10,669 bases of DNA from Jaenimonas drosophilae (lineage: Eukaryota; Euglenozoa; Kinetoplastea; Trypanosomatida; Trypanosomatidae): positions 1-10,669 of the forward strand of contig JASAON010001298.1 of NCBI GenBank assembly GCA_030849065.1, read 5' to 3'. Shown piece after piece: positions 1-10,669 of this stretch. The notes beneath the pieces are model-generated. The model was not told the origin of the DNA and ran no database searches. It saw only the letters and a program-made list of their open reading frames with translations. Each line of letters starts with the position of its first letter. Positions within the stretch are counted from its first letter, which is position 1. Made by a program: the position numbers and the translations under genes.

Positions 1-1260
1 CCCACACACAGGCACACGAAGGTCCATCCCACGTCCACCGCGGTTCGTCGTCAGAATCACAGTGCCACCACCACCATCATCAATGGACGGTAACTCGTCC
101 GTGTCCTTCGCATAGCAACGAATCACAGCACTCCGAAGCGGCTCCACGTGCTGCAACCCCGTCAGGTAGTCCCGCAACGAACGCACAGTTTCCACATGCT
201 CCGCAATCACCAGCACACTTTGACCATTCTGTAGTGCGCGGTACACATCCCCAAGAATCTGCTCCTGTTGGTGCCTCAATCCGTGGCACACAATAGGTGG
301 AAACACCTCCAGTGCACTCACGTACGCAGGCGGCACTACTACAGTACGCAAGCCATACTCGTGTTTGTACAGAAGACGCGTCTGAAAGCCACCAACCGTC
401 CCCGTCATCCCAGTCATGCAGTCACCCCAGTCCTTCAGGAACGCAAACGCAGAAAGCGAGAAGATCGAGTTCGACTCATCCTCCCAAGGCATCCCGTTCA
501 GCATGTTCAGCATCACTGACAGGCCGTTCTTCCACACAGTTCCAACCATCTCAGAACCGGTGCACACATCGTAGGGCACAATGCTCGAATCACCCTCAAG
601 GTACTCGGCATCTCGCTGCATTATGAGAGCCTGCTGAGCAGAGGAGTAGTACCCACGAAACACATCCAGTGATAGCAAGGGATCACCCTCCACAGTTCCA
701 GTGAACTGGCAAAGGTACCCAACATACCGCTGGTACGCAAGTCCCTCATCACAGCCATTCTTCGCCAACTGCAGAAGCAAAGGGAACACAGGCACAACCT
801 TCAGCATCTCAGCCATGTAGCTCCCCTTGTACACAGAGTTACTGAAGTTGTCAATCATCGGTACATCCGCCTCATCCACAATAAACCACTGCGCGTACTG
901 CAGGCGCACACGAAGAAGCGGCTCTTCACGGCTATCCGCGTACGTGCACAGTACACGGCCCATGAACTCATTCAGCGTGCTGTACACTACACTACACCCA
1001 AACGGAGTCACGTGTTCGCATGGCTTAAGAAGGCCAACGGCTTTCTCACCAAGCAGCTCAGTCAGTACACTCGCATGCACATCCATCGACGCAGCAGCAA
1101 GGTCCACGTGGGACGTCAGTACGTTCACACGGTACCCACAGTATGCCTTAAACACCGCAACACAACCACTGATGTACGTTTTGCCCTCACCGGTGCAAAT
1201 GTTCGCAATCTGGGCTCCACCCATCACCATCTGGCAAACCGCAAGCACCTGCACACGTCG
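1..1260 (-). other. SecA-type ATPase core (NBD1, short PPXD-like insert, start of NBD2)
   Basis: Residues 1722-2141 of the giant protein. Walker A TGEGKT is encoded at 1177-1194, DEAD Walker B at 865-876, GMTGT at 397-411 and motif VI at 22-45. Motif Ia is recognisable as V-N-V-L-T-S followed by D-L-A (from ~1766), and S-T-L-N-E-F (from ~1815) matches the place of the SecA T-N-N-E-Y segment. After GMTGT come V-V-V-P-P (2028-2032) and G-Q-S-V-L-V-I (from 2067), in the order expected of NBD2. Only about 90 residues separate the DEAD region (ending ~1859) from the I-V-P-Y-D-V-C-T-G strand (~1948-1956). In bacterial SecA the preprotein cross-linking domain there is about 150 residues, so this insert is reduced. 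The order GEGKT, then DExD, then GMTGT distinguishes SecA from ordinary DEAD-box RNA helicases. The scaffold, wing and C-terminal zinc regions would lie outside the window. Confidence 0.9.
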
Positions 1261-4200
1261 AGGCTTGTAGTGGTCTTTGCCCCACTGCCACATGGACAGA
1301 AACACTCGAAGAAGAACCCACTCCAGCATATGCTGATCCGCCACAAGTCGTTGCTCCTCCCTCATCACCTGTGCCGTGTGCATCGTTCTCCTCGCATCAC
1401 CATCCACACTCGCAGCCGCAGCATCAGCAGCAGTCCGTCGCATCGCAGATTGCAGCTCAGCCAACTTGTGGTCGATGTCACTTCCCCTCATCGATGGGTT
1501 CTCCGCCACCTCCACTGTACGGATAAACATCTCATCAACCCTCATTGCAAGACTTACAGTCTCTTCTGATATGCCAGTGTCTTGGGTGGAACAAAAGAGG
1601 CGGATGTCAGCCCAAGACCGCTGCTCGTCCTCCAGTAGATGCCTCAGCGAGGCACATCCAGCTTCACGTGCAACACTAATCCTCCGGCGGCGCTCCACCA
1701 GAGATATGTCCCGCTCCGCCACGGCAGCCTCCCATTGTTCTCTCTTCGTACTCACCTTCTCCAGCGGCGTCAGGTTCGGGTAACGAAGAAACTGCCCAAG
1801 ACGATCCTCGCACACGTCAGTATCGCACAGTCCGAGTGCAAACTTCCGTAGCGCAGGCCACTGGCCATCCCCACACTTCAACAGAAGATTGTACAGCGAA
1901 TGGCGATACGGACCAGACTTGGCAAACCACAGCAGCCACAGCTGTTTGAAGCGCTCAAGTCGGAGCACATCCACCCACTCCGGAAGTGGAAGCGACAACA
2001 GACTCTTGTGTAGATCCGCCTTCACCTCCATCCCACGCAGCAGCTGCATCACAACCTCCACATTCTCCGGGTACAGGCCAAACGAGCTCACCATCTCATC
2101 AAACCCCTTCCCAACCTTGAAGCACAGCAGGTCAACAACACCAAAGCTTGCATCCGCCGTGAACTCCCTCAGGCACGTGGCTTCATAAGGCGGCTGGAGC
2201 CGGCGGAACCAACACTGCAGCACATCGTGCATCAGTGAGCGGTACAGACCCTCCCACTCACCGCCGCGGTGCTCCTCCCACTTCTCACGGAAGTAGCCCT
2301 CACGCTCATCTCCCACAAGGTCTCGCCGCCAAAGGTACCGCAGCGACAGCAACGAAGTTTCATGAGGGTGCCACCGCTCCAGCAGACGCACATCCCACGA
2401 AGGGAGGGTGACGTGTAGCGACGCGAGATGTGGTTCACGCTGAAGTGTTTCAGCATCCCCACACATGGCAAGCGCCATGGCAATCATGGGACCATCGCGT
2501 GCCTCATCCAGATCACGGCACATGTTCCATGGCGATCGATGTCCTTCCTCCGCACAGTTGATGGAGAGCCGCTCTACCCACTGCATGACCATGCGGAGGT
2601 GCTTCACCGCCATCACATCCCCGTTGGAATCGTCAGCATAGCGCTCGCCGCACCAAAAGAGGCTTCGTTGAAGCTGGGTCAACGCAGACTTGAGAAGATT
2701 CATTAGCGACAGCTTCGTCGTTGACTGCACGTAGTGCCGCACAATCTCACTGGAGGACAGCAAGGATGACTGCTGGACGAACAAAAGGCAGTGACAGCAG
2801 GGCACACGGGGTACCTGACGAAGATCCAAGGAGCGATCGTCGAGCATCAACGACTTCTCCAGGTGAAAGAGCTTCGTGTCACTTCGTTGCTCTTCACGGA
2901 GGGCACACCGACAGAAGCAGTCCGGAAGCTGCTGATGGGGGAACACACCGCACCACTCCCGCAGTCGCACTAGCTGAAGTTGAAGCCGAAGGCAGAGAAG
3001 CGGGAAGTTGTCTCCCGCATTGGGGGCACTTGTGACGGCGGCGACAAGCTCTTCAAGGGACCTCCACTGAAGGTGCTGTGTAGAAGAGAACTCCTCAGTA
3101 ACACCGTGCAGTTGGTTCAGCATCGCGCGCCAATCTCGCTCGTTGGCACCAAAGACAGCTACCGCTGCGTCGAGGAAAGGATCCGCATCCAAGTGAATGA
3201 GAGGCCGCCAGTGACGATAAAGCACCACTTTGCATGTGTAGTGAGAAGGACCTCGAAGAAATGACCGCAGCCAAGTCGCCACCTCCCCCAGTGAGCTCTT
3301 GTGGAGCTCCGCATGCGCAGTTTCATCGATGCACTTCATCAGCCAATCGTAGACTTGAGCGAGAAGCGGTGTGTGGCACACAATATCATCGTCTTGACCG
3401 CTCACGTGCGTTGCGCTGCACTGGTCCTTGTAGATCACTGAAAGATGACGAAGAAAGTCGTCACAGGTGCTGAGGTACTTCATCCAGTGGCCATCTCCGG
3501 GTACAAGCAGTCGGTACCCAAGAACTTCAATTCCAAAAGCGCTGACCTTCTCATAGAGCTTCCGTGCTTCCTCCTCGCATGTGGGGAACTGCTCCAGCAG
3601 CAACGGACACACAGGAACAATGCCAGCTCCAACAAGGACCTCCTCTATGCGAGAATACTCGCAGGTTCGTACACACTCCACAGCTTCCCGCACCTTCGCC
3701 AGACGCACGCCATCCAGTCCATGTCGCATCGACTTGGAACACGCCAAAGCTGTCTGGTATTGCACGGCGCGGCGAATAAGCCGACTGAGCTCTGTAGTCA
3801 CCGCCTCTACTGACAAATAGTGGCGATCCTTCTTATTCATTAAACTATTTGTCGTGAACAATGAAAGCTCCGAAAGGAGCTCCTTTTGCGGAATGCCACA
3901 CAATGCGCTCGCGTACTCCATTGTGTACTGGCGAAAGCCTTCCAGAAACGCATCCCTAGCGCCCCCCTCGACGCTGCTCGTGCAATGCGCATGGAGTATA
4001 CTAAGATGGTGAGCATAGTTGTTCAGCCACCCCGCCTCACGCGTTGCACAAGATTCGGCAAAACGTTCATACACATTCACATGTTGGTCTTGAACAGAAT
4101 GTCGGAAAAATCGCGTAGACTTAAACACAGGGATCGTACTCCAGTAGTTGCCCTTGGAGTTGTGTCTGTCTAAGTCTGCAGCCACCTCCGTCCGCCCCAC

Positions 4201-6423
4201 ATCTTCATTCTCCATAAGAAGACACTTCATGGCGTTAGAGCGTGATGCCAGCAGGACATGTGGCAACGGTGCAGCCACCTCGGCGGTGTGGCGCGGCTCC
4301 TCAAGCACATCTTCACCCAGCATGAGTGCTATACTCCCTCGCTGTGGATGGAATCGACTACTCATGGGTCCCACATCTCGTCGCTGAAGGCCTTGGTGAC
4401 GGCGCACCAAGACCCCACGACGAAGCACACAGTCGTCCAGCCGCCCCGCCCCCACCGGGTCAGTATCAACCGCAAAGCCTCGCCATCCTCCCTTCACAAT
4501 CGTACCAACTTCATCCTTGGCGACGCGATGCGAGTGGAACATCTCCTCCCCGTCATCAACATACACAACATCTTCCCTGGAACTCGCACCCCACACACGT
4601 GTGTAGTGCCCTCGCAACAACGCCGCCCGCCCATCACAACCGCCAAGTCCAGCGGCACCCGCGCGGCCCATGTCGCCGTCCTCTCCGTTGTCACCATTCA
4701 CACTCTCCACGCGCACCCAACTGTGCATTGGAAGCACCTCTACCGTACCGCGCTCACCACATACGCCGCCAGCACCGCGAACACCAGANGCACGAATCGA
4801 GACGTGCCCAGCGTGTTCACCAGGTTCCCCAGGCGAGCCGTCACAGCCGCACGCACCATCTCCCTCACCATCTGCACCGTTCTCACCATCCCTCCCATGG
4901 CGGCCAGACGTATCAATCCTCACAGACCCCCGCACCAACACGTAGTCCGCTCGAATCGACACACTCACAGAGGGAAGCTTCAGATCAACATCCAAACAGA
5001 GAACACGTGCAGTCAGCATCACCACCTCCGCAACAGGTGAGGTCGTTTGCAGCGCCACCTGTAATAGCTCTTCGCGAAACAGTGAGAGGCGAAGGAAAGG
5101 CGCGTCAACAACAACCCCCGTCGTCCGGTTGCCCAGTGAGGCGACTTTCAAGTTCAGTACACTAGCGTGGGGAGGCTGTGAGAATATGGCTGAGGCGTAG
5201 AATTTCAGTTGCTTCCCGACGTCACCGCATAACAGCCAGCTCGGCGTATTTTTGCTCCAGATTTGGTGCGCTGTGTCGGCATCCACATCCATCAACTCCT
5301 CCAGCCGCTTCTCAATGAACGCGTCGAGGTGCCGTCGCGGTTCCACCACTGCATCGACAACCGCGCTAACGATTGGTGAAATTGTTTGAAGCAATGAACT
5401 CCAGTTTAGTCGCGCAAGCCCGCCACCGTCGCCTTCAGCCTCATCTGGCACCAGCCGTTTTATGAGGCAACGGCAACAGCGAGTAGAGGAAAGCAACAGC
5501 GATGTGTGTTCTGAGCACGTTGCCTTGCCGGAAACAATATCTGAGAGCAAGCGCCTGCACAGGGCATCTCTGCTGGACTCACAGTCCACGATCTGAGAAG
5601 CGCGCACCATCAAAGAGGAACGCACCCTACTGAGCACCGTATGAATATCGTCCATGGTCTCTGTTCGCACGGTTCCGTCCTGCCCATCCTCGGGCATATT
5701 TCGGCCTTTGGCCACCAGATCCTCCTTCACGTGCACAAGAATTTCACACGGACCAATCTGCTCTACATCATCCACCCTCTCCAACTCTAATAATCTCTGT
5801 AGTGTATGATCTGCCCTTGTCAATCGCTTCCGCACATCCACCCGATCCGTCAGTGTCACGTACATCAGTCGATCCAGCAGTCCGCATACCACAGACAAGA
5901 AATCGCGGCACGCACGCACAGAGGAAGGCCACGACATACACAGTTGCAGATCCAACGCACGGTTCAACTTACCAAGTGTCACCAGGAAGTTGTACTCCAA
6001 CATCTCCAGCCACCGCTGCACCTCCACATCACCCGCGTGCGCCACGTACCGTTGCAGTACAGCCACAAGATGGCCCTTACACTCAACGAAGCCGCCAGCC
6101 ACTACCGCACCCATTTCTGGGGAATACGCACGCACGCGTCGCAGGCAACGAGCGGCCGTTGCGGGGATCAGCTCAACAATCCATCGTGCGGCATCGGAAC
6201 CAAACGAAAACGGAAATATTTGTCGCCTGCCGAGCAAGCATGTCAGCAGCGACAGCCATCGAGCTTGAGGTCCTTGTCCCCCCACGTCACGCTGGCTGTA
6301 CAGCTCACTCACAATTCCCTCCAACTTCGTTGCGTCTTTCATCAGAAATGTACAATCATCTTCCTGGTTTGGTTCAGTGAGTTGATGTAGGTACAGGTGG
6401 ACGGCAGTGCGAAGGTCAGCCAT
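1..6423 (-). CDS. Giant SecA-like DEAD motor protein, C-terminal end beyond the window
   Basis: One open frame of 2,141 codons with no stop, starting at the ATG at 6423-6421 and leaving the window at position 1. The start is well supported: it is the first ATG after an in-frame TAA at 6526-6528, and no ATG in any frame occurs in the ~320 nt upstream. Residues 1722-2141 carry the SecA-type ATPase motifs in order: an R-x-V-Q segment (1723-1725), TGEGKT (1744-1749), DEAD (1850-1853), a TG plus W-K-N-G-L segment (1955-1968), GMTGT (2005-2009) and N-R-G-G-R-G-M-D (2127-2134). SecA proteins use ATP hydrolysis to move polypeptides; bacterial SecA is about 900 residues, whereas here some 1,700 residues precede the motor. 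That extension has a glycine-rich segment at ~486-601, Trp-rich helical sequence at ~1330-1540 and a charged helical stretch at ~1555-1700. No signal peptide or clear membrane span is visible. Key ATPase residues are intact, so activity is plausible; substrate and cellular location are unknown. Confidence 0.93.
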   Translation of the reverse strand, partial: MADLRTAVHLYLHQLTEPNQEDDCTFLMKDATKLEGIVSELYSQRDVGGQGPQARWLSLLTCLLGRRQIFPFSFGSDAARWIVELIPATAARCLRRVRAYSPEMGAVVAGGFVECKGHLVAVLQRYVAHAGDVEVQRWLEMLEYNFLVTLGKLNRALDLQLCMSWPSSVRACRDFLSVVCGLLDRLMYVTLTDRVDVRKRLTRADHTLQRLLELERVDDVEQIGPCEILVHVKEDLVAKGRNMPEDGQDGTVRTETMDDIHTVLSRVRSSLMVRASQIVDCESSRDALCRRLLSDIVSGKATCSEHTSLLLSSTRCCRCLIKRLVPDEAEGDGGGLARLNWSSLLQTISPIVSAVVDAVVEPRRHLDAFIEKRLEELMDVDADTAHQIWSKNTPSWLLCGDVGKQLKFYASAIFSQPPHASVLNLKVASLGNRTTGVVVDAPFLRLSLFREELLQVALQTTSPVAEVVMLTARVLCLDVDLKLPSVSVSIRADYVLVRGSVRIDTSGRHGRDGENGADGEGDGACGCDGSPGEPGEHAGHVSIRXSGVRGAGGVCGERGTVEVLPMHSWVRVESVNGDNGEDGDMGRAGAAGLGGCDGRAALLRGHYTRVWGASSREDVVYVDDGEEMFHSHRVAKDEVGTIVKGGWRGFAVDTDPVGAGRLDDCVLRRGVLVRRHQGLQRRDVGPMSSRFHPQRGSIALMLGEDVLEEPRHTAEVAAPLPHVLLASRSNAMKCLLMENEDVGRTEVAADLDRHNSKGNYWSTIPVFKSTRFFRHSVQDQHVNVYERFAESCATREAGWLNNYAHHLSILHAHCTSSVEGGARDAFLEGFRQYTMEYASALCGIPQKELLSELSLFTTNSLMNKKDRHYLSVEAVTTELSRLIRRAVQYQTALACSKSMRHGLDGVRLAKVREAVECVRTCEYSRIEEVLVGAGIVPVCPLLLEQFPTCEEEARKLYEKVSAFGIEVLGYRLLVPGDGHWMKYLSTCDDFLRHLSVIYKDQCSATHVSGQDDDIVCHTPLLAQVYDWLMKCIDETAHAELHKSSLGEVATWLRSFLRGPSHYTCKVVLYRHWRPLIHLDADPFLDAAVAVFGANERDWRAMLNQLHGVTEEFSSTQHLQWRSLEELVAAVTSAPNAGDNFPLLCLRLQLQLVRLREWCGVFPHQQLPDCFCRCALREEQRSDTKLFHLEKSLMLDDRSLDLRQVPRVPCCHCLLFVQQSSLLSSSEIVRHYVQSTTKLSLMNLLKSALTQLQRSLFWCGERYADDSNGDVMAVKHLRMVMQWVERLSINCAEEGHRSPWNMCRDLDEARDGPMIAMALAMCGDAETLQREPHLASLHVTLPSWDVRLLERWHPHETSLLSLRYLWRRDLVGDEREGYFREKWEEHRGGEWEGLYRSLMHDVLQCWFRRLQPPYEATCLREFTADASFGVVDLLCFKVGKGFDEMVSSFGLYPENVEVVMQLLRGMEVKADLHKSLLSLPLPEWVDVLRLERFKQLWLLWFAKSGPYRHSLYNLLLKCGDGQWPALRKFALGLCDTDVCEDRLGQFLRYPNLTPLEKVSTKREQWEAAVAERDISLVERRRRISVAREAGCASLRHLLEDEQRSWADIRLFCSTQDTGISEETVSLAMRVDEMFIRTVEVAENPSMRGSDIDHKLAELQSAMRRTAADAAAASVDGDARRTMHTAQVMREEQRLVADQHMLEWVLLRVFLSMWQWGKDHYKPRRVQVLAVCQMVMGGAQIANICTGEGKTYISGCVAVFKAYCGYRVNVLTSHVDLAAASMDVHASVLTELLGEKAVGLLKPCEHVTPFGCSVVYSTLNEFMGRVLCTYADSREEPLLRVRLQYAQWFIVDEADVPMIDNFSNSVYKGSYMAEMLKVVPVFPLLLQLAKNGCDEGLAYQRYVGYLCQFTGTVEGDPLLSLDVFRGYYSSAQQALIMQRDAEYLEGDSSIVPYDVCTGSEMVGTVWKNGLSVMLNMLNGMPWEDESNSIFSLSAFAFLKDWGDCMTGMTGTVGGFQTRLLYKHEYGLRTVVVPPAYVSALEVFPPIVCHGLRHQQEQILGDVYRALQNGQSVLVIAEHVETVRSLRDYLTGLQHVEPLRSAVIRCYAKDTDELPSIDDGGGGTVILTTNRGGRGMDLRVPVCG
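1321..1761 (-). other. Charged helical linker preceding the SecA core
   Basis: Residues ~1555-1701 are rich in Glu, Arg, Ala and Lys with few glycines or prolines. They include runs such as V-E-R-R-R-R (from ~1576) and an Ala-rich stretch with A-A-D-A-A-A-A (~1665-1671). This pattern suits long amphipathic helices or a coiled coil. It sits where bacterial SecA has only a short N-terminal helix before its nucleotide-binding fold. A connecting or dimerising role is only a guess. Confidence 0.5.
4621..4968 (-). other. Glycine-rich collagen-like / beta-repeat segment in the giant protein
   Basis: Residues ~486-601 of the SecA-like protein. Short beta-like strands (V-S-I-R-A at 488-492, V-S-I-R-A at 541-545, V-R-V-E-S at 570-574) are each followed by glycine-rich loops. 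The first loop has G-x-x periodicity, such as G-R-H-G-R-D-G-E-N-G-A-D; the second contains G-V-R-G-A-G-G-V-C-G-E-R-G; the third contains N-G-D-N-G-E-D-G-D-M-G. This suggests a beta-solenoid-like or collagen-like low-complexity module rather than a true triple helix, because the G-x-x runs are short and broken. Similar Gly/Asp/Asn-rich blocks occur in other very large protist proteins (general knowledge, not checked). It may serve as a spacer or binding surface. Confidence 0.7.
4789..4789. other. Ambiguous base (N) in the assembly
   Basis: The only undetermined base falls in the third position of codon 545 of the SecA-like gene, read as GCN on the minus strand. It therefore encodes alanine whatever the base is, and does not threaten the reading frame. 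It lies in the GC-rich glycine-repeat region. Confidence 0.97.
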
Positions 6424-6696
6424 GATGGTGGTAAGGTGTGGATGCGAGCGAGTCAGAAAAAGGCCGTGAAAACCTTCGGCCACAGATTTAGAGGAGATCC
6501 AAAGCACAATCTCACAACACAACAATTAATGATATAAATGAAATACGAAAATGCTACTCCCTCACTTTACGAAGTAGGTGAAAGGGTAGAAATACTTCCT
6601 ACCTATAATAACAGTACTAGTCACTAGGAACAGACGATACACGACCAAGGGGGACGGGGTCCCGAGATAGCAAAATGAAGAGTAACGGAAGTCTCA
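6424..6696 (-). other. Predicted 5' leader (UTR) of the SecA-like gene
   Basis: From the candidate splice acceptor to the start codon, about 273 nt, there is no ATG in any minus-strand frame, although about four would be expected by chance. An in-frame TAA at 6526-6528 closes the frame upstream of the start. The bases just before the start are A-C-C-A-T-C, with no Shine-Dalgarno-like purine run, consistent with eukaryotic scanning. Confidence 0.5.
6651..6663. repeat. Small GC-rich inverted repeat in the leader
   Basis: GGGAC, a three-base GGG loop, then GTCCC: a perfect five-base-pair stem. It would lie in the 5' leader of the SecA-like transcript. It is too short for any firm functional claim. 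Confidence 0.4.
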
Positions 6697-6740
6697 CTCA
6701 AGAGAAGCGTAGAAAAGAAGAAACGAAGGCGAGGATAGAA
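6697..6740 (-). promoter_or_regulatory. Polypyrimidine tract and AG: candidate trans-splice acceptor of the SecA-like gene
   Basis: Read on the minus strand, 35 of the 40 bases from 6740 to 6701 are pyrimidines, and the first AG follows immediately at 6698-6697 (a second at 6694-6693). In kinetoplastids such tracts direct addition of the spliced leader to pre-mRNA and polyadenylation of the gene upstream. Use of this AG would give a ~273-nt leader without any ATG before the start at 6423. The nearest upstream ATG (6748-6746) lies just outside the tract and would be removed. Function is inferred from composition and position. Confidence 0.55.
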
Positions 6741-6912
6741 TTCACCATAGCGACGCAAAAGCAGATTGTCCGTCAGAGATGGAGCACCGCCATGAAACGC
6801 TAGGATAGTTTAGTGGGCAATTTTCAAGAATGTTACGTTGACGGCAGTCTGATACGCGTGAGAGGATAGGCGCTGCCCTCCACTTAGATTCCAGTACCAG
6901 TGCAATTGTTGT

Positions 6913-6941
6913 ACTCTTGACAAAATAAAGAGAGAAATGAG
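6913..6941 (-). promoter_or_regulatory. Alternative pyrimidine-rich tract (weaker splice-signal candidate)
   Basis: On the minus strand this reads as a mainly pyrimidine run (TCTCATTTCTCTCTTTATTTTG) followed by CAAGAG. It resembles a kinetoplastid splice acceptor but is farther from the start. A leader from here would include an ATG near 6748 and so is less attractive than the tract at 6701-6740. It could be a minor site. Confidence 0.25.
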
Positions 6942-7368
6942 ATAACTGCTGGCGACAGATATAAGAGAGTTTACTATATATAGTTGCGCCTCAACATGTG
7001 CCAAAATACAAAAATAATTCAACCTTCATTTGTCAGCCACTTTGCTTCCTGTATCGGAGCAGCAGGGGCACTCTTCTCTTCTCCCCAAAGCTCAACCTCA
7101 GTTTCTCGCCCTCACATACGTTCGAAATGTATCGTTGAAGCACTGAGGAGTCAGTTCAAAATAAAGGGGAATAAATGCTTGAGGACGGCAAAGAAAAGGC
7201 CATTCTTGAGAAGCTTTTAAATAGGCTGCTTTCACATTCACTGGCATGAACTCGCCTTCTTGGCAAACAGTTATATTTTCCTTGCGGATTCATCTAAGGT
7301 ATCCTCACGTGAAGAGAAGTTTGGCACTTCTAAAGTTTGGTATCCCAAGCGTTCGTGTCGAGGGCCTT

Positions 7369-7382
7369 GGGTGGGTGGGTGG
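7369..7382 (+). repeat. G-tract cluster (GGGT repeats)
   Basis: Three GGG tracts separated by single T bases are followed by a GG on the plus strand. This is nearly the minimal G-quadruplex pattern, but the fourth tract has only two G. The predicted transcript, from the minus strand, would carry the C-rich complement. Confidence 0.6.
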
Positions 7383-7548
7383 TCTCGAGGCAACAATTCG
7401 CTAGAGCTTCGCCCTGTCTTAAGCCAGAAGAGCAAGAGATCCATGAAAAAATAAAACAGCATTCGCTTTCTCCTGAACCTGAATAAGGAGACTTCCACAC
7501 ACAGAGACACAGAAAGAGGCAAAGGAATCTCTCACCGGAATTCAGATA

Positions 7549-7580
7549 CATCTGTCGAGTAGTCCATCTGTCGAATAGTC
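7549..7580. repeat. Tandem duplication of a 16-bp unit
   Basis: Two adjacent copies of CATCTGTCGARTAGTC (7549-7564 and 7565-7580) differ at one base. A partial third trace (TCGAACTGTAG-like) follows. The array begins about 20 bp downstream of the right-hand gene's stop, in its 3' untranslated region. This looks like a recent local slippage duplication; no function is implied. Confidence 0.85.
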
Positions 7581-7600
7581 GAACTGTAGAGACGCTTCCG

Positions 7601-10600
7601 TTACAGTAAGGCTAAAATATAAATCGGTGGTGTGTCATCGGGCATCTCCTCGCTAAATCCATTATCGACATGAAGACGGGTGTTGCAATTGCCGAGCTCA
7701 TGTTTGACATTGCTCAAAAACCTATCAAGGACAGAATCTCCGCGGATTGGTTTGCCATTCCTGTCGACAGATTTGTTGAAAATAGAAGAATACCAGCCAC
7801 GACTCTGCTTGTGGCGATACTTGGATGTACTGCCGTCAACGTTGACATTGTTTCCATAAGTATACGATTTGTTATTTCGATCTTTGTAGTTCAATCTGCC
7901 CGCCTTGGTTCTTTTCGAAAAATCACACTTTCTGAAGGATTTTATCTCCCTCACCGCCCTCTTAGTAGAGACGTAGAGATCGTACATTTCTCGCAGCTGA
8001 ATTTTGCTCTTATCTGGCAAATCTGAACAAGATTCCACACAAGAATATATCCAACCACCCACTTTCGATACGACAGTATCCTTGAGATTTGGTTTTAGCA
8101 TCGTAACTAGCTTCCCTTGGACCCCACAAATCGCAAGCGCATAACACTGCCCACCTGTTGCTACCAATCTGACAATTGTACTTGGTCGAATTCCGATTTT
8201 TTCCCCAATCCAGCTATCCCATCCAACCGTATATCTGTGTGTACGATCGATACCCGTGACTGTGACTGAAGTGACTAAACTTAAGAGAGAACCATCCTCC
8301 TTCTCGCCATGCGGCAGTGATTTCTCCTCAAACTCCTCCAAACTCGACACTACGTCTGGGGAATCTTCCGCAGCTGGGGGCGGCACAGCTGGGATTTCCG
8401 TCTTCGGCAGGGGGGCCTCCTCTTCAGGCTTATCGGGCGGGTCAGCTTCCGGTGGATCCGAGGCATCTGCCGGCTCCCCTCCGTTGCTGTCCTGTTCCTC
8501 CTCCGGCACATGTTCCTTCATCCCAGAATCTTCTGCACTGGTGTTACCATCGTCCTGCTGCTCGTCAGGAAGACTCGGCTCCAGGACGCGGCCTACTACA
8601 TTGTAGCAGTTTCGTAACAGCTGCTCAGTGGGACGGACCACCGCTAACTCAAACTTCTTCCCAACGCAAATGGCAAGGTTTAGTGATTCCTTGTTACAAA
8701 ATGAAGGAGATATACACTTGTCATCGTGTAGCTGAAGCACTAAGTTGTCCACCAGGTTATCGAAGCTCATGCCTACAGTATCACCCGACGGCAGTGGCAA
8801 TAGAGCTGATAAGTTGGGTTGCTGGATACCAAACTTGGACGTCAAGTCCGACATTAGTTTCTGACCGACTTTGGCGAAATCTTCTTCCACCTTCTGTGTC
8901 ACAGCTTTGTACGCAGACGTCATCAAGTTCACCGCAAGAGCATGATCATGATAAATTTGGTCCTGAGAAAGCATAGCATTGGCAGCGCTTAGGCATCCTT
9001 TGCACACATCCCGCGCCACAGCCCACTGACTTCCTGCCTTGTCCTCCACGTAGCACTCGCGGACATGGCGCACGAGAGCAGCATGTTTAGTATCTGGCAA
9101 TTGTTGCTCTGAAGTTACCAATGCTACAAACAATGGTGCCACAATCTTCTTCACCATCAGCCGCTCCACCTCCGATGGGGACATACGCAAATTGCACAGA
9201 GTCTCCGCCGCTTTTTGTATTGTGTAGTCCTTCGCACAATTTGTTGCGAAGCGCACGCAGCACTGCGTCGCCTTACTTTGTAATAAGAGCGATCCTCTTG
9301 CGCTCATGATCCGTTTCGACACCTTCCAATCTCGCACTTTAGAAATGGCGTTGGAAACTTTCGTGGCCACGCGGCCGATGGTCTTTTCATACAAGCGCGA
9401 TGACGTTACTTCGGTGATGAGCTGCTTCACCTTATCTGGAAGCTTCACCATCTCCAGCAAATTCATCGCTGCATTCGTCCACTGACCCTGCATCAATGAT
9501 GATACAGTCTTCAACGCTGTCAGAGCGATCTTCACCTGCGGACACAAAGTTGTGACAAGGTCGCACAAAAAAGGCATCACGTTGTTACGAATAGAATCAG
9601 GTAATCTACGCATAACCTTATCCCACTGCCGTCCACACCATTCGACACCCTTCTTCACCATCGAAAAAACAAAGAGAGATCCCCTCTTTACTTTCTCAAA
9701 CAACCACAAGAAGCACGACTTAGCTCCTGAACACAGGCGACCAAAGAACGACTTCTCCTTCTCCAGCTCTTTCTCCACACGTTGGCAGTGTAGCTGCTTC
9801 ACCACGGACACATGTTCGTGGCAGCCCACCAGCCACAGCAAATGCATCTCTTCACTGGTACAGGGAAGGAGCTTGTCCACGGGCGCACGAGAGAACGATT
9901 TGATTTGATCTCTCCGCAACACACCTACACAAGACAGAATCACACCAGTTAGAAACTCGCACACTGAACCAGCACCAATCGCTTCCTCAATAGTGTGGGC
10001 GTAGTCCTCGTCGTGCAGGTGGAGGAAATCCGGATGCACCCACATGTGCGGGCCACTTCCCAACACACCAGCATCCATTGCTCGCCCCGTAACACTGTAC
10101 AGAATCGAGTTCAGTGGGTCTGCCGCTGAATGTCCATCAGTGGCTCGTTGAGCAATGTACTCCCACATATCCAAAATGGTTCCAAACATCTTAGCATCCT
10201 CCAAGGGAATTTCTTCACCCAGCTCCACTGCAAGGTACTCCGCAACCTTCACTGAATCGATTGGCATATAAGAAAGAAGATTGCTGTGCTTCTTCAGGCA
10301 CTTCAACACCCCCACTAGCTCCGACACATCGGACGGTGTACCCTCACGAATAAAATCTGTCACGGAAAACTGATTGTTGCATGTACCCACAAGGCCCATC
10401 GTGTAGCTCTCTAGTCGTTTCGCGAGATCGCAATGATCTTCAGCGCACTCGAGGGAGCCACTTCCACAATTTTTCCCTTTATTAAGAAGTCCACCAACAC
10501 CCCTCGACAGCTCTTCTAGAGCCACCACACGTTTGCTAAAACATGTCAAACTCCTATACACAGCTTCTCGTAGCACATTCATGCTATCACAACCACCAAA

Positions 10601-10669
10601 ACGCGCGTTTTCAGAAGCCACAAACGCACTATGAAGTGCAAATGTTCCATAGAAGGTGTCCACCTCACT
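7601..10669 (-). CDS. Unrecognised large protein, N-terminal end beyond the window
   Basis: The frame is open from the right edge to the TAA at 7603-7601, giving 1,022 visible residues. A GTG at 10663 is in frame, but the frame continues upstream of it, and GTG is not an expected eukaryotic start, so the gene is treated as 5'-truncated. I recognise no enzyme family or nucleotide-binding motif. Numbering from the first visible codon, residues 1-690 look mainly alpha-helical. They include a charged segment then a basic-hydrophobic patch (~292-354). Residues 698-782 form an acidic proline-rich linker, 799-872 look beta-rich (with G-W-D-S-W-I-G at ~815-822), and 887-987 form a basic, Asn/Lys/Tyr-rich tail ending in hydrophobic I-Y-I-L-A-L-L. 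Cysteines are frequent but not in a clear zinc-binding spacing. By eye its codons use more A/T than the SecA-like gene. It could be the C-terminal part of another giant protein, possibly related to its neighbour; nothing visible proves this. Confidence 0.85.
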   Translation of the reverse strand, partial: SEVDTFYGTFALHSAFVASENARFGGCDSMNVLREAVYRSLTCFSKRVVALEELSRGVGGLLNKGKNCGSGSLECAEDHCDLAKRLESYTMGLVGTCNNQFSVTDFIREGTPSDVSELVGVLKCLKKHSNLLSYMPIDSVKVAEYLAVELGEEIPLEDAKMFGTILDMWEYIAQRATDGHSAADPLNSILYSVTGRAMDAGVLGSGPHMWVHPDFLHLHDEDYAHTIEEAIGAGSVCEFLTGVILSCVGVLRRDQIKSFSRAPVDKLLPCTSEEMHLLWLVGCHEHVSVVKQLHCQRVEKELEKEKSFFGRLCSGAKSCFLWLFEKVKRGSLFVFSMVKKGVEWCGRQWDKVMRRLPDSIRNNVMPFLCDLVTTLCPQVKIALTALKTVSSLMQGQWTNAAMNLLEMVKLPDKVKQLITEVTSSRLYEKTIGRVATKVSNAISKVRDWKVSKRIMSARGSLLLQSKATQCCVRFATNCAKDYTIQKAAETLCNLRMSPSEVERLMVKKIVAPLFVALVTSEQQLPDTKHAALVRHVRECYVEDKAGSQWAVARDVCKGCLSAANAMLSQDQIYHDHALAVNLMTSAYKAVTQKVEEDFAKVGQKLMSDLTSKFGIQQPNLSALLPLPSGDTVGMSFDNLVDNLVLQLHDDKCISPSFCNKESLNLAICVGKKFELAVVRPTEQLLRNCYNVVGRVLEPSLPDEQQDDGNTSAEDSGMKEHVPEEEQDSNGGEPADASDPPEADPPDKPEEEAPLPKTEIPAVPPPAAEDSPDVVSSLEEFEEKSLPHGEKEDGSLLSLVTSVTVTGIDRTHRYTVGWDSWIGEKIGIRPSTIVRLVATGGQCYALAICGVQGKLVTMLKPNLKDTVVSKVGGWIYSCVESCSDLPDKSKIQLREMYDLYVSTKRAVREIKSFRKCDFSKRTKAGRLNYKDRNNKSYTYGNNVNVDGSTSKYRHKQSRGWYSSIFNKSVDRNGKPIRGDSVLDRFLSNVKHELGNCNTRLHVDNGFSEEMPDDTPPIYILALL
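7709..8011 (-). other. Basic Lys/Arg/Asn-rich tail of the right-hand protein
   Basis: Visible residues ~887-987 are strongly basic, with S-F-R-K-C-D-F-S-K-R-T-K at ~911-922 and a polar G-N-N-V-N-V-D-G-S-T-S-K-Y-R-H-K stretch following. This could bind nucleic acid or contain a nuclear localisation signal; that is inference from composition only. Confidence 0.45.
8324..8578 (-). other. Acidic, proline-rich disordered linker in the right-hand protein
   Basis: Over 85 residues, 28 are Asp or Glu and 16 are Pro, with few hydrophobic residues. Examples are E-E-E-Q-D-S-N-G-G-E and P-E-A-D-P-P-D-K-P-E-E-E. This composition predicts an unstructured, flexible linker between the helical region and the beta-rich C-terminal domain. 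Confidence 0.8.
9608..9796 (-). other. Charged then basic-hydrophobic helical patch in the right-hand protein
   Basis: Visible residues ~292-354. A charged stretch (V-E-K-E-L-E-K-E-K) leads into repeated F/W/L/V-rich turns broken by Lys and Arg (C-F-L-W-L-F-E-K-V-K-R-G, then L-F-V-F-S-M-V-K-K-G-V-E-W). Hydrophobic runs are too short and too often interrupted by Lys or Arg for a confident transmembrane helix. Amphipathic helices that bind a membrane or a partner fit better. Confidence 0.45.

What the first reader, a model, noticed from the sequence alone, without database searches (positions are those of the whole stretch)
1..1260. SecA-type protein-translocase motor embedded in a giant protein of an apparent eukaryote
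The minus strand encodes, in correct order, the SecA hallmarks TGEGKT, DExD, GMTGT and N-R-G-G-R-G-M-D. Outside bacteria, canonical SecA is known as a chloroplast (plastid) protein of about 900-1,000 residues. Here the motor starts after ~1,700 residues of other sequence in a gene with eukaryotic signals. SecA-like DEAD domains have been annotated in some large protist proteins, but as far as I know their function is unstudied. It may represent a protein-threading or unfolding machine rather than a membrane translocase, or an RNA-independent remodeler.
Basis: partly seen in the sequence, partly recalled or inferred. Interest (0 to 1): 0.85.

Follow-up and report, generated by a model that had tools for sequence, protein, structure and literature searches.

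The report
Giant SecA-motor protein in a trypanosomatid
A trypanosomatid-type parasite genome carries one very long gene with a bacterial-style SecA protein-pushing motor buried in it; it looks like a far-diverged cousin of little-studied giant SecA proteins known from animals and intracellular bacteria, some of which resemble toxins.

The parts
1..6423 (-). Giant SecA-motor gene, 2,141 codons from ATG at 6423; runs off the contig at 1 (3' end missing)
   Evidence: contig end
13..1332 (-). SecA-like motor core (residues ~1698-2137: NBD1, clamp-like insert, NBD2 up to motif V)
1177..1194 (-). Walker A TGEGKT (residues 1744-1749)
   Evidence: TGEGK invariant in the 63-row alignment
865..879 (-). 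Walker B VDEAD (residues 1849-1853)
568..837 (-). Clamp (PPXD)-like segment between two strands of the model (residues ~1863-1952); not recognised by PF01043, but inside the structural match to SecA
   Evidence: spacing
397..411 (-). Motif III GMTGT (residues 2005-2009)
22..45 (-). Motif V NRGGRGMD (residues 2127-2134)
4624..4905 (-). Collagen-like Gly-X-X runs, residues 507-600, in the N-terminal part; 0 of 20,000 shuffles of residues 500-605 reach the observed run content
   Evidence: weak collagen-type profile hits
1354..6423 (-). N-terminal ~1,690 residues without detectable homologue among the fetched relatives compared
6424..7600 (.). Intergenic region; on the minus strand a pyrimidine-rich tract (about 6701-6734) followed by AG, resembling a trans-splicing acceptor (inference from reading the sequence)
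7601..10669 (-). Upstream gene A (>=1,022 aa, 5' end cut), same strand; no Pfam family above cut-off; 56% identical paralogue at C263:142-2937

Best explanation
This is a nuclear gene of a trypanosomatid-type kinetoplastid that encodes a giant protein of the 'giant SecA' class: a SecA motor (two RecA folds plus a polypeptide clamp) set behind ~1,700 residues of other sequence. Shown: motor fold, ATPase motifs up to motif V, a clamp-like insert in the model, no second copy found, lineage of the genome. Inferred: it hydrolyses ATP and uses the clamp to pull a polypeptide, most likely an unfolded client or part of its own chain, in the cytosol or at a membrane, without being a SecYEG subunit. The long N-terminus would give localisation and client choice. 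The missing C-terminus probably holds the rest of NBD2, a helical scaffold and a lineage-specific end domain, as in relatives.
Against: Extremely divergent: 19-26% identity to the 62 relatives; branch 4.55 against a median of 0.44. The profile margin (31 bits) is small: seven known giants, each scored with itself left out, gave margins of about 160-425 bits. DExD-to-GMTGT spacing is 151, like canonical SecA (median 160, 54 of 56 measurable) and unlike giants (median 293, minimum 158, 80 of 96). The tree does not reject joining it to canonical SecA (AU p 0.134). 8 of 42 conserved sites changed, among them RD of LAxRD and three residues of NLAGRGTD. PF01043 is not found by HMM. Nothing after motif V can be seen. 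No expression, localisation or biochemical data.
Confidence: 0.5

Rival explanations
1. It is a domesticated or active member of a toxin/effector class: the SecA motor drives delivery or release of a C-terminal effector carried on the same chain, as in polymorphic-toxin-like giants of intracellular bacteria.
For: L102 and L103 giants are 94-100% identical in 25 of 28 blocks of 100 columns up to column 2,800 (82, 83 and 88% in the other three), 76-92% to 3,200, then 52 falling to 19%; the small ORFs directly downstream (152 and 175 aa) do not match, and synteny resumes at 99%. L103 ends in WHH/colicin-DNase domains, L092 in Colicin_D: 2 of 8 bacterial/viral giants scanned. L042/L061 agree at 76-98% to column ~2,700 (48-54% at 151-450), then 4-20%. 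Literature passages: SecA in phage WO's eukaryotic association module (PMC5062602), SecA-like ATPase domains in giant actinobacterial toxins, predicted there to aid secretion (PMC8195603), SecA-like domains in Amoebophilus effectors (PMC3482391).
Against: P0001's C-terminus is unseen; no homology to those giants outside the motor. 6 of 8 bacterial/viral giants scanned showed no toxin family; L059/L094 show no sharp C-terminal break. The one fish member scanned carries ApoL, NACHT and LRR instead.
Confidence: 0.25
2. It derives from, or still works as, an ordinary SecA translocase subunit acquired from a bacterium or plastid.
For: GMTGT and TGEGKT are spelled as in canonical SecA (alignment consensus); clamp spacing is canonical-like; joining with canonical SecA is not rejected.
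Against: 62.5 bits against the secA equivalog cut-off of 800, 69.8 against 814, though on a truncated protein; motor buried at residue ~1,698; better fit to the giant-class HMM. Kinetoplastids have no plastid (established knowledge). No other Sec component was searched for.
Confidence: 0.08
3. It is a nucleic-acid helicase or RNA remodeller that resembles SecA.
For: Shares the SF2 two-RecA core; DinG, eIF4A and RIG-I also align.
Confidence: 0.05
4. The contig is a contaminant or an artefact, or the gene is decayed.
For: Short contig (10.7 kb) cut through the gene; no close homologue found among proteins of the sizes searched; no exact spliced-leader match in the assembly (recalled pattern).
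Against: 2,141 codons without a stop; gene A's paralogue (56%) on a 54-kb contig with a kinetoplastid-type mitoribosomal gene. Composition is compatible (GC3 0.61, r 0.63, higher than 14 of 33 host ORFs), but the antisense control scores 0.675, so codon usage does not discriminate. A contaminating second kinetoplastid is not excluded.
Confidence: 0.1

Closest known systems
Giant eukaryotic-type SecA proteins (wBol1_1092, 11,829 nt, and relatives in insects, Daphnia, Tetrahymena, Polysphondylium; Duplouy et al. 2013, PMC3639933, passages)
   Same: SecA motor inside a very long protein in eukaryotic genomes
   Different: Those sequences were not compared directly (not fetched). P0001 is more divergent than any giant in the tree and its N-terminus matches none compared
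Animal SecA giants, e.g. Prochilodus P0002 (ApoL + NACHT + LRR + SecA)
   Same: Only significant protein hit (24% identity over 83% and 95% of the two motor queries)
   Different: No ApoL, NACHT or LRR in P0001; P0001 has Gly-X-X runs
Giants of Rickettsia endosymbionts, Orientia, Parachlamydiales, Legionellales and two IMG/VR contigs
   Same: Motor without PF07516 in those scanned; core at a similar depth (about 1,635-2,097 in L102/L103)
   Different: Bacterial or putative viral genomes; two end in nuclease toxin domains; only a weak tree link, to L026/L038 (79/88)
Canonical SecA (TIGR00963)
   Same: Fold, motifs, clamp-like insert and its spacing
   Different: ~800-1,000 aa with wing/scaffold and SEC-C tail; equivalog cut-off 800 bits, P0001 62.5
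Secondary SecA_DEAD proteins of Planctomycetes and others (PMC4452313, abstract and outline only)
   Same: Non-canonical SecA
   Different: Linked to type I secretion genes. Planctomycete SecA-like proteins of 635-659 aa fetched here (L022, L045, L098) fall with canonical SecA; whether they are that paper's proteins was not tested

Membership tests
SecA motor fold | SecA-specific HMM, PDB and structure match above other SF2 groups | tested here: met
SecA motor fold | Intact ATP-binding and hydrolysis motifs | tested here: met
   34 of 42 near-invariant sites kept, including TGEGK, DExD, G..GT and N..GRG.D; motif VI lies beyond the contig end
SecA motor fold | PPXD clamp between Walker B and motif III | tested here: met
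   By structure only: 411 of 451 residues align to 6itc_A, chain 56-502, spacing 151. The PF01043 HMM does not match (control rings in 10 of 14 genomes)
Canonical SecA translocase subunit | Score above the SecA equivalog cut-off | tested here: not met
   62.5 v 800 and 69.8 v 814 bits, on a truncated protein
Canonical SecA translocase subunit | Motor at the N-terminus of an ~800-1,000 residue protein | tested here: not met
   Motor begins at residue ~1698
Canonical SecA translocase subunit | Wing/scaffold with two-helix finger, SEC-C tail | not testable with these tools
   Contig ends just after motif V; continuation not found in the assembly (97 has no positive control)
Giant SecA class | SecA motor embedded deep in a >1,200-residue protein | tested here: met
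Giant SecA class | Motor sequence closer to the giant than to the canonical profile | tested here: met
   161.1 v 129.9 bits; 5 of 5 balanced draws. Weak: seven left-out known giants have margins of about 160-425 bits
Giant SecA class | Long insert between DExD and G(M/L/V)TGT typical of giants | tested here: not met
   151 residues, against a giant median of 293 (range 158-572, 80 of 96) and a canonical median of 160. Not a published criterion; the lower end of the giant range is near
Giant SecA class | Groups with giants in a tree | tested here: inconclusive
   Outside the 19 canonical-type rows (100/100), but AU p 0.134 does not reject joining them
Giant SecA class | Conserved post-motor helical domain | not testable with these tools
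   Missing from the contig; in relatives L024's tail matches 16 of 20 other giants' tails
Polymorphic toxin | Variable C-terminal toxin plus adjacent immunity gene | not testable with these tools
   C-terminus missing; seen only in relatives
Plastid SecA | Plastid targeting and plastid clade | not tested
   No plastid SecA was fetched; kinetoplastids lack plastids (established knowledge)

The most novel reading that the evidence does not exclude
SecA-motor giants are a cross-kingdom class of self-threading effector machines: in intracellular bacteria and their mobile elements they are polymorphic toxins that use a SecA motor (clamp kept, wing lost) to push interchangeable C-terminal toxins, and eukaryotes, here a trypanosomatid whose group lives in insects (general knowledge; this species' host is unknown), captured and re-armed them with their own N-terminal targeting parts for defence or competition.
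Probability: 0.2. Interest if true: 0.85.

Novelty: new variant of a known kind. Interest (0 to 1): 0.55.

Why it matters
SecA is the textbook bacterial secretion motor, yet a class of giant proteins in animals, protists and intracellular bacteria carries it without a recognisable canonical wing/scaffold, and no function for the eukaryotic ones appeared in the papers seen. A kinetoplastid member widens its spread to a group with genetic tools. The interchangeable, toxin-like ends found here in bacterial relatives extend a published prediction for actinobacterial giants (PMC8195603) and make the motor's role testable.

Tried and rejected
Rejected: RNA helicase reading and ordinary translocase-subunit reading, the latter less firmly.

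Led nowhere: homologues of the N-terminus or of gene A among relatives by phmmer and hhalign (its 'CF' comparison failed and the two repeated 'CF' lines are void). Gly-X-X runs as a shared trait: runs of four or more triplets occur in 44 of 120 listed relatives, mostly the motor motifs GRTGRxG and GxxGxTGTLG; exceptions are P0077, L042, L097 and P0123, and none shown has four adjacent runs as P0001 does. Phytomonas identity: cytochrome c1 is present, whereas Phytomonas lacks cytochromes (recalled); species not named. Exact spliced-leader pattern: 0 matches; the pattern is recalled, so this excludes little. P-loop_SecA hits elsewhere in the genome: the best is an ordinary DEAD-box protein by inspection; the other two were not examined. 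Codon usage does not discriminate. A continuation of the gene was sought by DNA and by one relative's tail, without result.

Rows dropped: one search kept 153 of 205 matched proteins as full cores; one search used 16 of 22 chosen 'euk' rows (six lacked a full core), 22 giants and 19 of 56 canonical-type cores; one search left out L078; one search used 62 of 76 prepared relatives; A3 used 20 of 21.

Absence from print rests only (open-licence papers).

Full report
What is there. The minus strand from 6423 to base 1 is open for 2,141 codons. The window is the whole of contig C7 (10,669 bases), so the gene's 3' end is lost. PF07517 SecA_DEAD matches residues 1695-2010 (E 6.8e-12); P-loop_SecA is only hinted at (11.8 bits, cut-off 27). 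Eight SecA NCBIfam models match, the best at E 1.3e-19, all far below their cut-offs (the protein is truncated). All 22 PDB sequences with E<=1 are SecA or SecA2.

Whose genome. The assembly is 18.8 Mb in 370 contigs. Paraflagellar-rod PF05149 has 4 matches, best E 7.2e-89, and 0 of 14 control genomes ring. A mitoribosomal uS19m on contig C263 matches 7ane (E 1.8e-96), 6hiv and 7aor; I recall these as Leishmania, T. brucei and T. cruzi mitoribosomes. Cytochrome c1 is present. PF07517 gives one match in the genome (only best candidates are scored) and P0001 matches only itself. The upstream gene A on the same strand has a 56% paralogue at the end of the same C263, which ties C7 to a kinetoplastid. 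A second, contaminating kinetoplastid is not excluded. Pyrimidine-rich sequence before an AG upstream of the ATG resembles a trans-splice site (read; inference).

Relatives. Two searches of 5.8 billion proteins with the motor found one significant hit, a fish ApoL-NACHT-LRR-SecA protein (24% identity, E 2.5e-9 and 1.9e-9), plus one weak hit (E 0.14, 3,880 aa, P0123). By the tool's length rule one search covered proteins of about 1,178-3,747 aa and scored only the 7,987 candidates sharing most words; one search covered about 1,956-6,223 aa with 3,908 candidates. So no close orthologue, in trypanosomatids or elsewhere, turned up in that size range. Searching with the fish motor gave 639 proteins, 120 listed, from fish, coelacanth, amphibians, an ostracod, a horseshoe crab, a hemichordate, a brittle star, a flatworm and unnamed sources. 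A scan of bacterial genomes gave 92 loci, 80 kept, and of viral contigs 3. These include giants or pieces of giants in Rickettsia endosymbionts, Orientia chuto, Parachlamydiales, Legionellales, Bandiella and Arcanobacter.

Which class. A 58-row tree separates 19 canonical-type bacterial SecAs from everything else at 100/100; P0001 lies outside them, weakly with L026 and L038 (79/88), on a branch of 4.55 (median 0.44). Holding it with canonical SecA costs 11.3 log units, AU p 0.134, and with 14 animal-type rows 4.0, p 0.353: position unresolved. Profiles favour the giant class, 161.1 v 129.9 bits, and in 5 of 5 draws of 20 v 20 sequences; but seven known giants scored with themselves left out have margins of about 160-425 bits, so P0001's preference is weak. 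Its short DExD-GMTGT spacing also looks canonical. My 'euk' label includes unnamed metagenome proteins; P0121 pairs with a Flavobacteriaceae MAG locus. L078, a 1,476-aa protein next to the canonical group, was in neither profile.

What the giants keep and lose. PF07516 (wing and scaffold) is found in 4 of 5 canonical-type controls, in 0 of 12 giants scanned and in none of the 120 precomputed rows shown. The region after the motor is nevertheless conserved: L024's tail matches 16 of 20 other bacterial/viral giants' tails at E<=0.01 in that small set. A model of it from L024 (pLDDT 78.7, pTM 0.61) shows a 47-residue helix and further helices; 21 of 28 SecA entries align with it past NBD2, to chain residues 716-835, while 7, including the top-ranked 6itc_A, stop at or before model residue 232. 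So a scaffold helix and perhaps the finger hairpin may remain while the wing seems gone. This weakens a simple 'no scaffold' reading and is the best guess for P0001's missing part.

A clue from relatives. L102 and L103 (IMG/VR contigs; whether truly viral was not tested) encode 3.56-kaa giants that are 94-100% identical in 25 of 28 blocks up to column 2,800 (82-88% in three), 76-92% to 3,200, then 52 falling to 19%; the small ORFs directly downstream (152 and 175 aa) do not match each other at E<=1, a 138-base piece of L102's 3' end also matches a downstream stretch of L103 (87%), and synteny resumes at 99%. L103 ends in WHH and colicin-DNase domains and L092 in Colicin_D, 2 of 8 bacterial/viral giants scanned. 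L042 and L061 diverge in the same way after ~2,700 columns, besides a 48-54% stretch at 151-450; L059/L094 show no sharp C-terminal break. Swapped C-termini with a swapped next gene are the signature of polymorphic toxins (established knowledge).

Literature. Duplouy et al. 2013 (PMC3639933; passages) described two long eukaryote-like secA genes in Wolbachia wBol1, with homologues in insects, Daphnia, Tetrahymena, Polysphondylium and Salpingoeca, and eukaryote-to-bacterium transfers. SecA is listed in phage WO's eukaryotic association module (PMC5062602, passages; PMC9203015, passages), SecA-like ATPase domains in giant actinobacterial toxins (PMC8195603, passages) and SecA-like helicase-related domains in Amoebophilus effectors (PMC3482391, passage); a SecA DEAD-like protein stands in a table of Legionella genes related to eukaryotic ones (PMC4256840, passage) and a SecA DEAD-like transcript in a Daphnia expression table (PMC5037449, passage). 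I saw no kinetoplastid member and no tested function for eukaryotic giants in ten paper searches (listings, plus the passages named).

Unique parts. Residues 1-1,690 match nothing among the relatives compared. Residues 507-600 hold Gly-X-X runs (69 residues in runs of four or more triplets; 0 of 20,000 shuffles reach this), a collagen- or polyglycine-like segment.

Mechanism. Shown: fold, motifs, weak class preference, genome lineage. Inferred: ATP-driven gripping and stepping along a polypeptide by the clamp, as in SecA, with the N-terminus choosing place and client. Whether the client is another protein, its own C-terminal domain, or an effector for use against other cells cannot be told from this contig.

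Noticed in passing
window 7601-10669 (-) and C263:1-3147 (L012): Gene A is a two-member family (56% identity), both copies at contig ends; no Pfam family above cut-off for the window copy. No SecA gene was found on C263.
   Followed up: partly
window 6424-7600 and L012:3148-4900: The regions downstream of the two gene A copies share two short collinear matches (29 nt at 90%, 38 nt at 79%), suggesting a duplicated segment that later diverged.
   Followed up: partly
L012:7018-7707 (+) and 8387-8926 (-): Inverted pair of very similar ORFs on C263, near gene A's paralogue; looks like a repeat-rich region.
   Followed up: no
L102:4340-15010, L103:5102-15766: Two near-identical 3.56-kaa SecA-motor giants with different C-termini and different downstream ORFs: polymorphic-toxin signature on putative viral contigs.
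   Followed up: partly
L042:4330-13806, L061:5882-14509: Giants of two Rickettsia endosymbionts whose last ~550 alignment columns are 4-20% identical while most of the rest is 76-98%.
   Followed up: partly
L092:666-8429: Candidatus Arcanobacter giant with SecA motor and C-terminal Colicin_D domain; L091 carries an identical 5' part on another contig.
   Followed up: partly
P0002: Fish protein joining ApoL, NACHT, LRR and a SecA motor, i.e. a SecA motor fused to an innate-immune receptor architecture; a single 'partial' gene model.
   Followed up: no
window 4789: Single ambiguous base (N) inside the Gly-X-X segment, giving an X residue.
   Followed up: no
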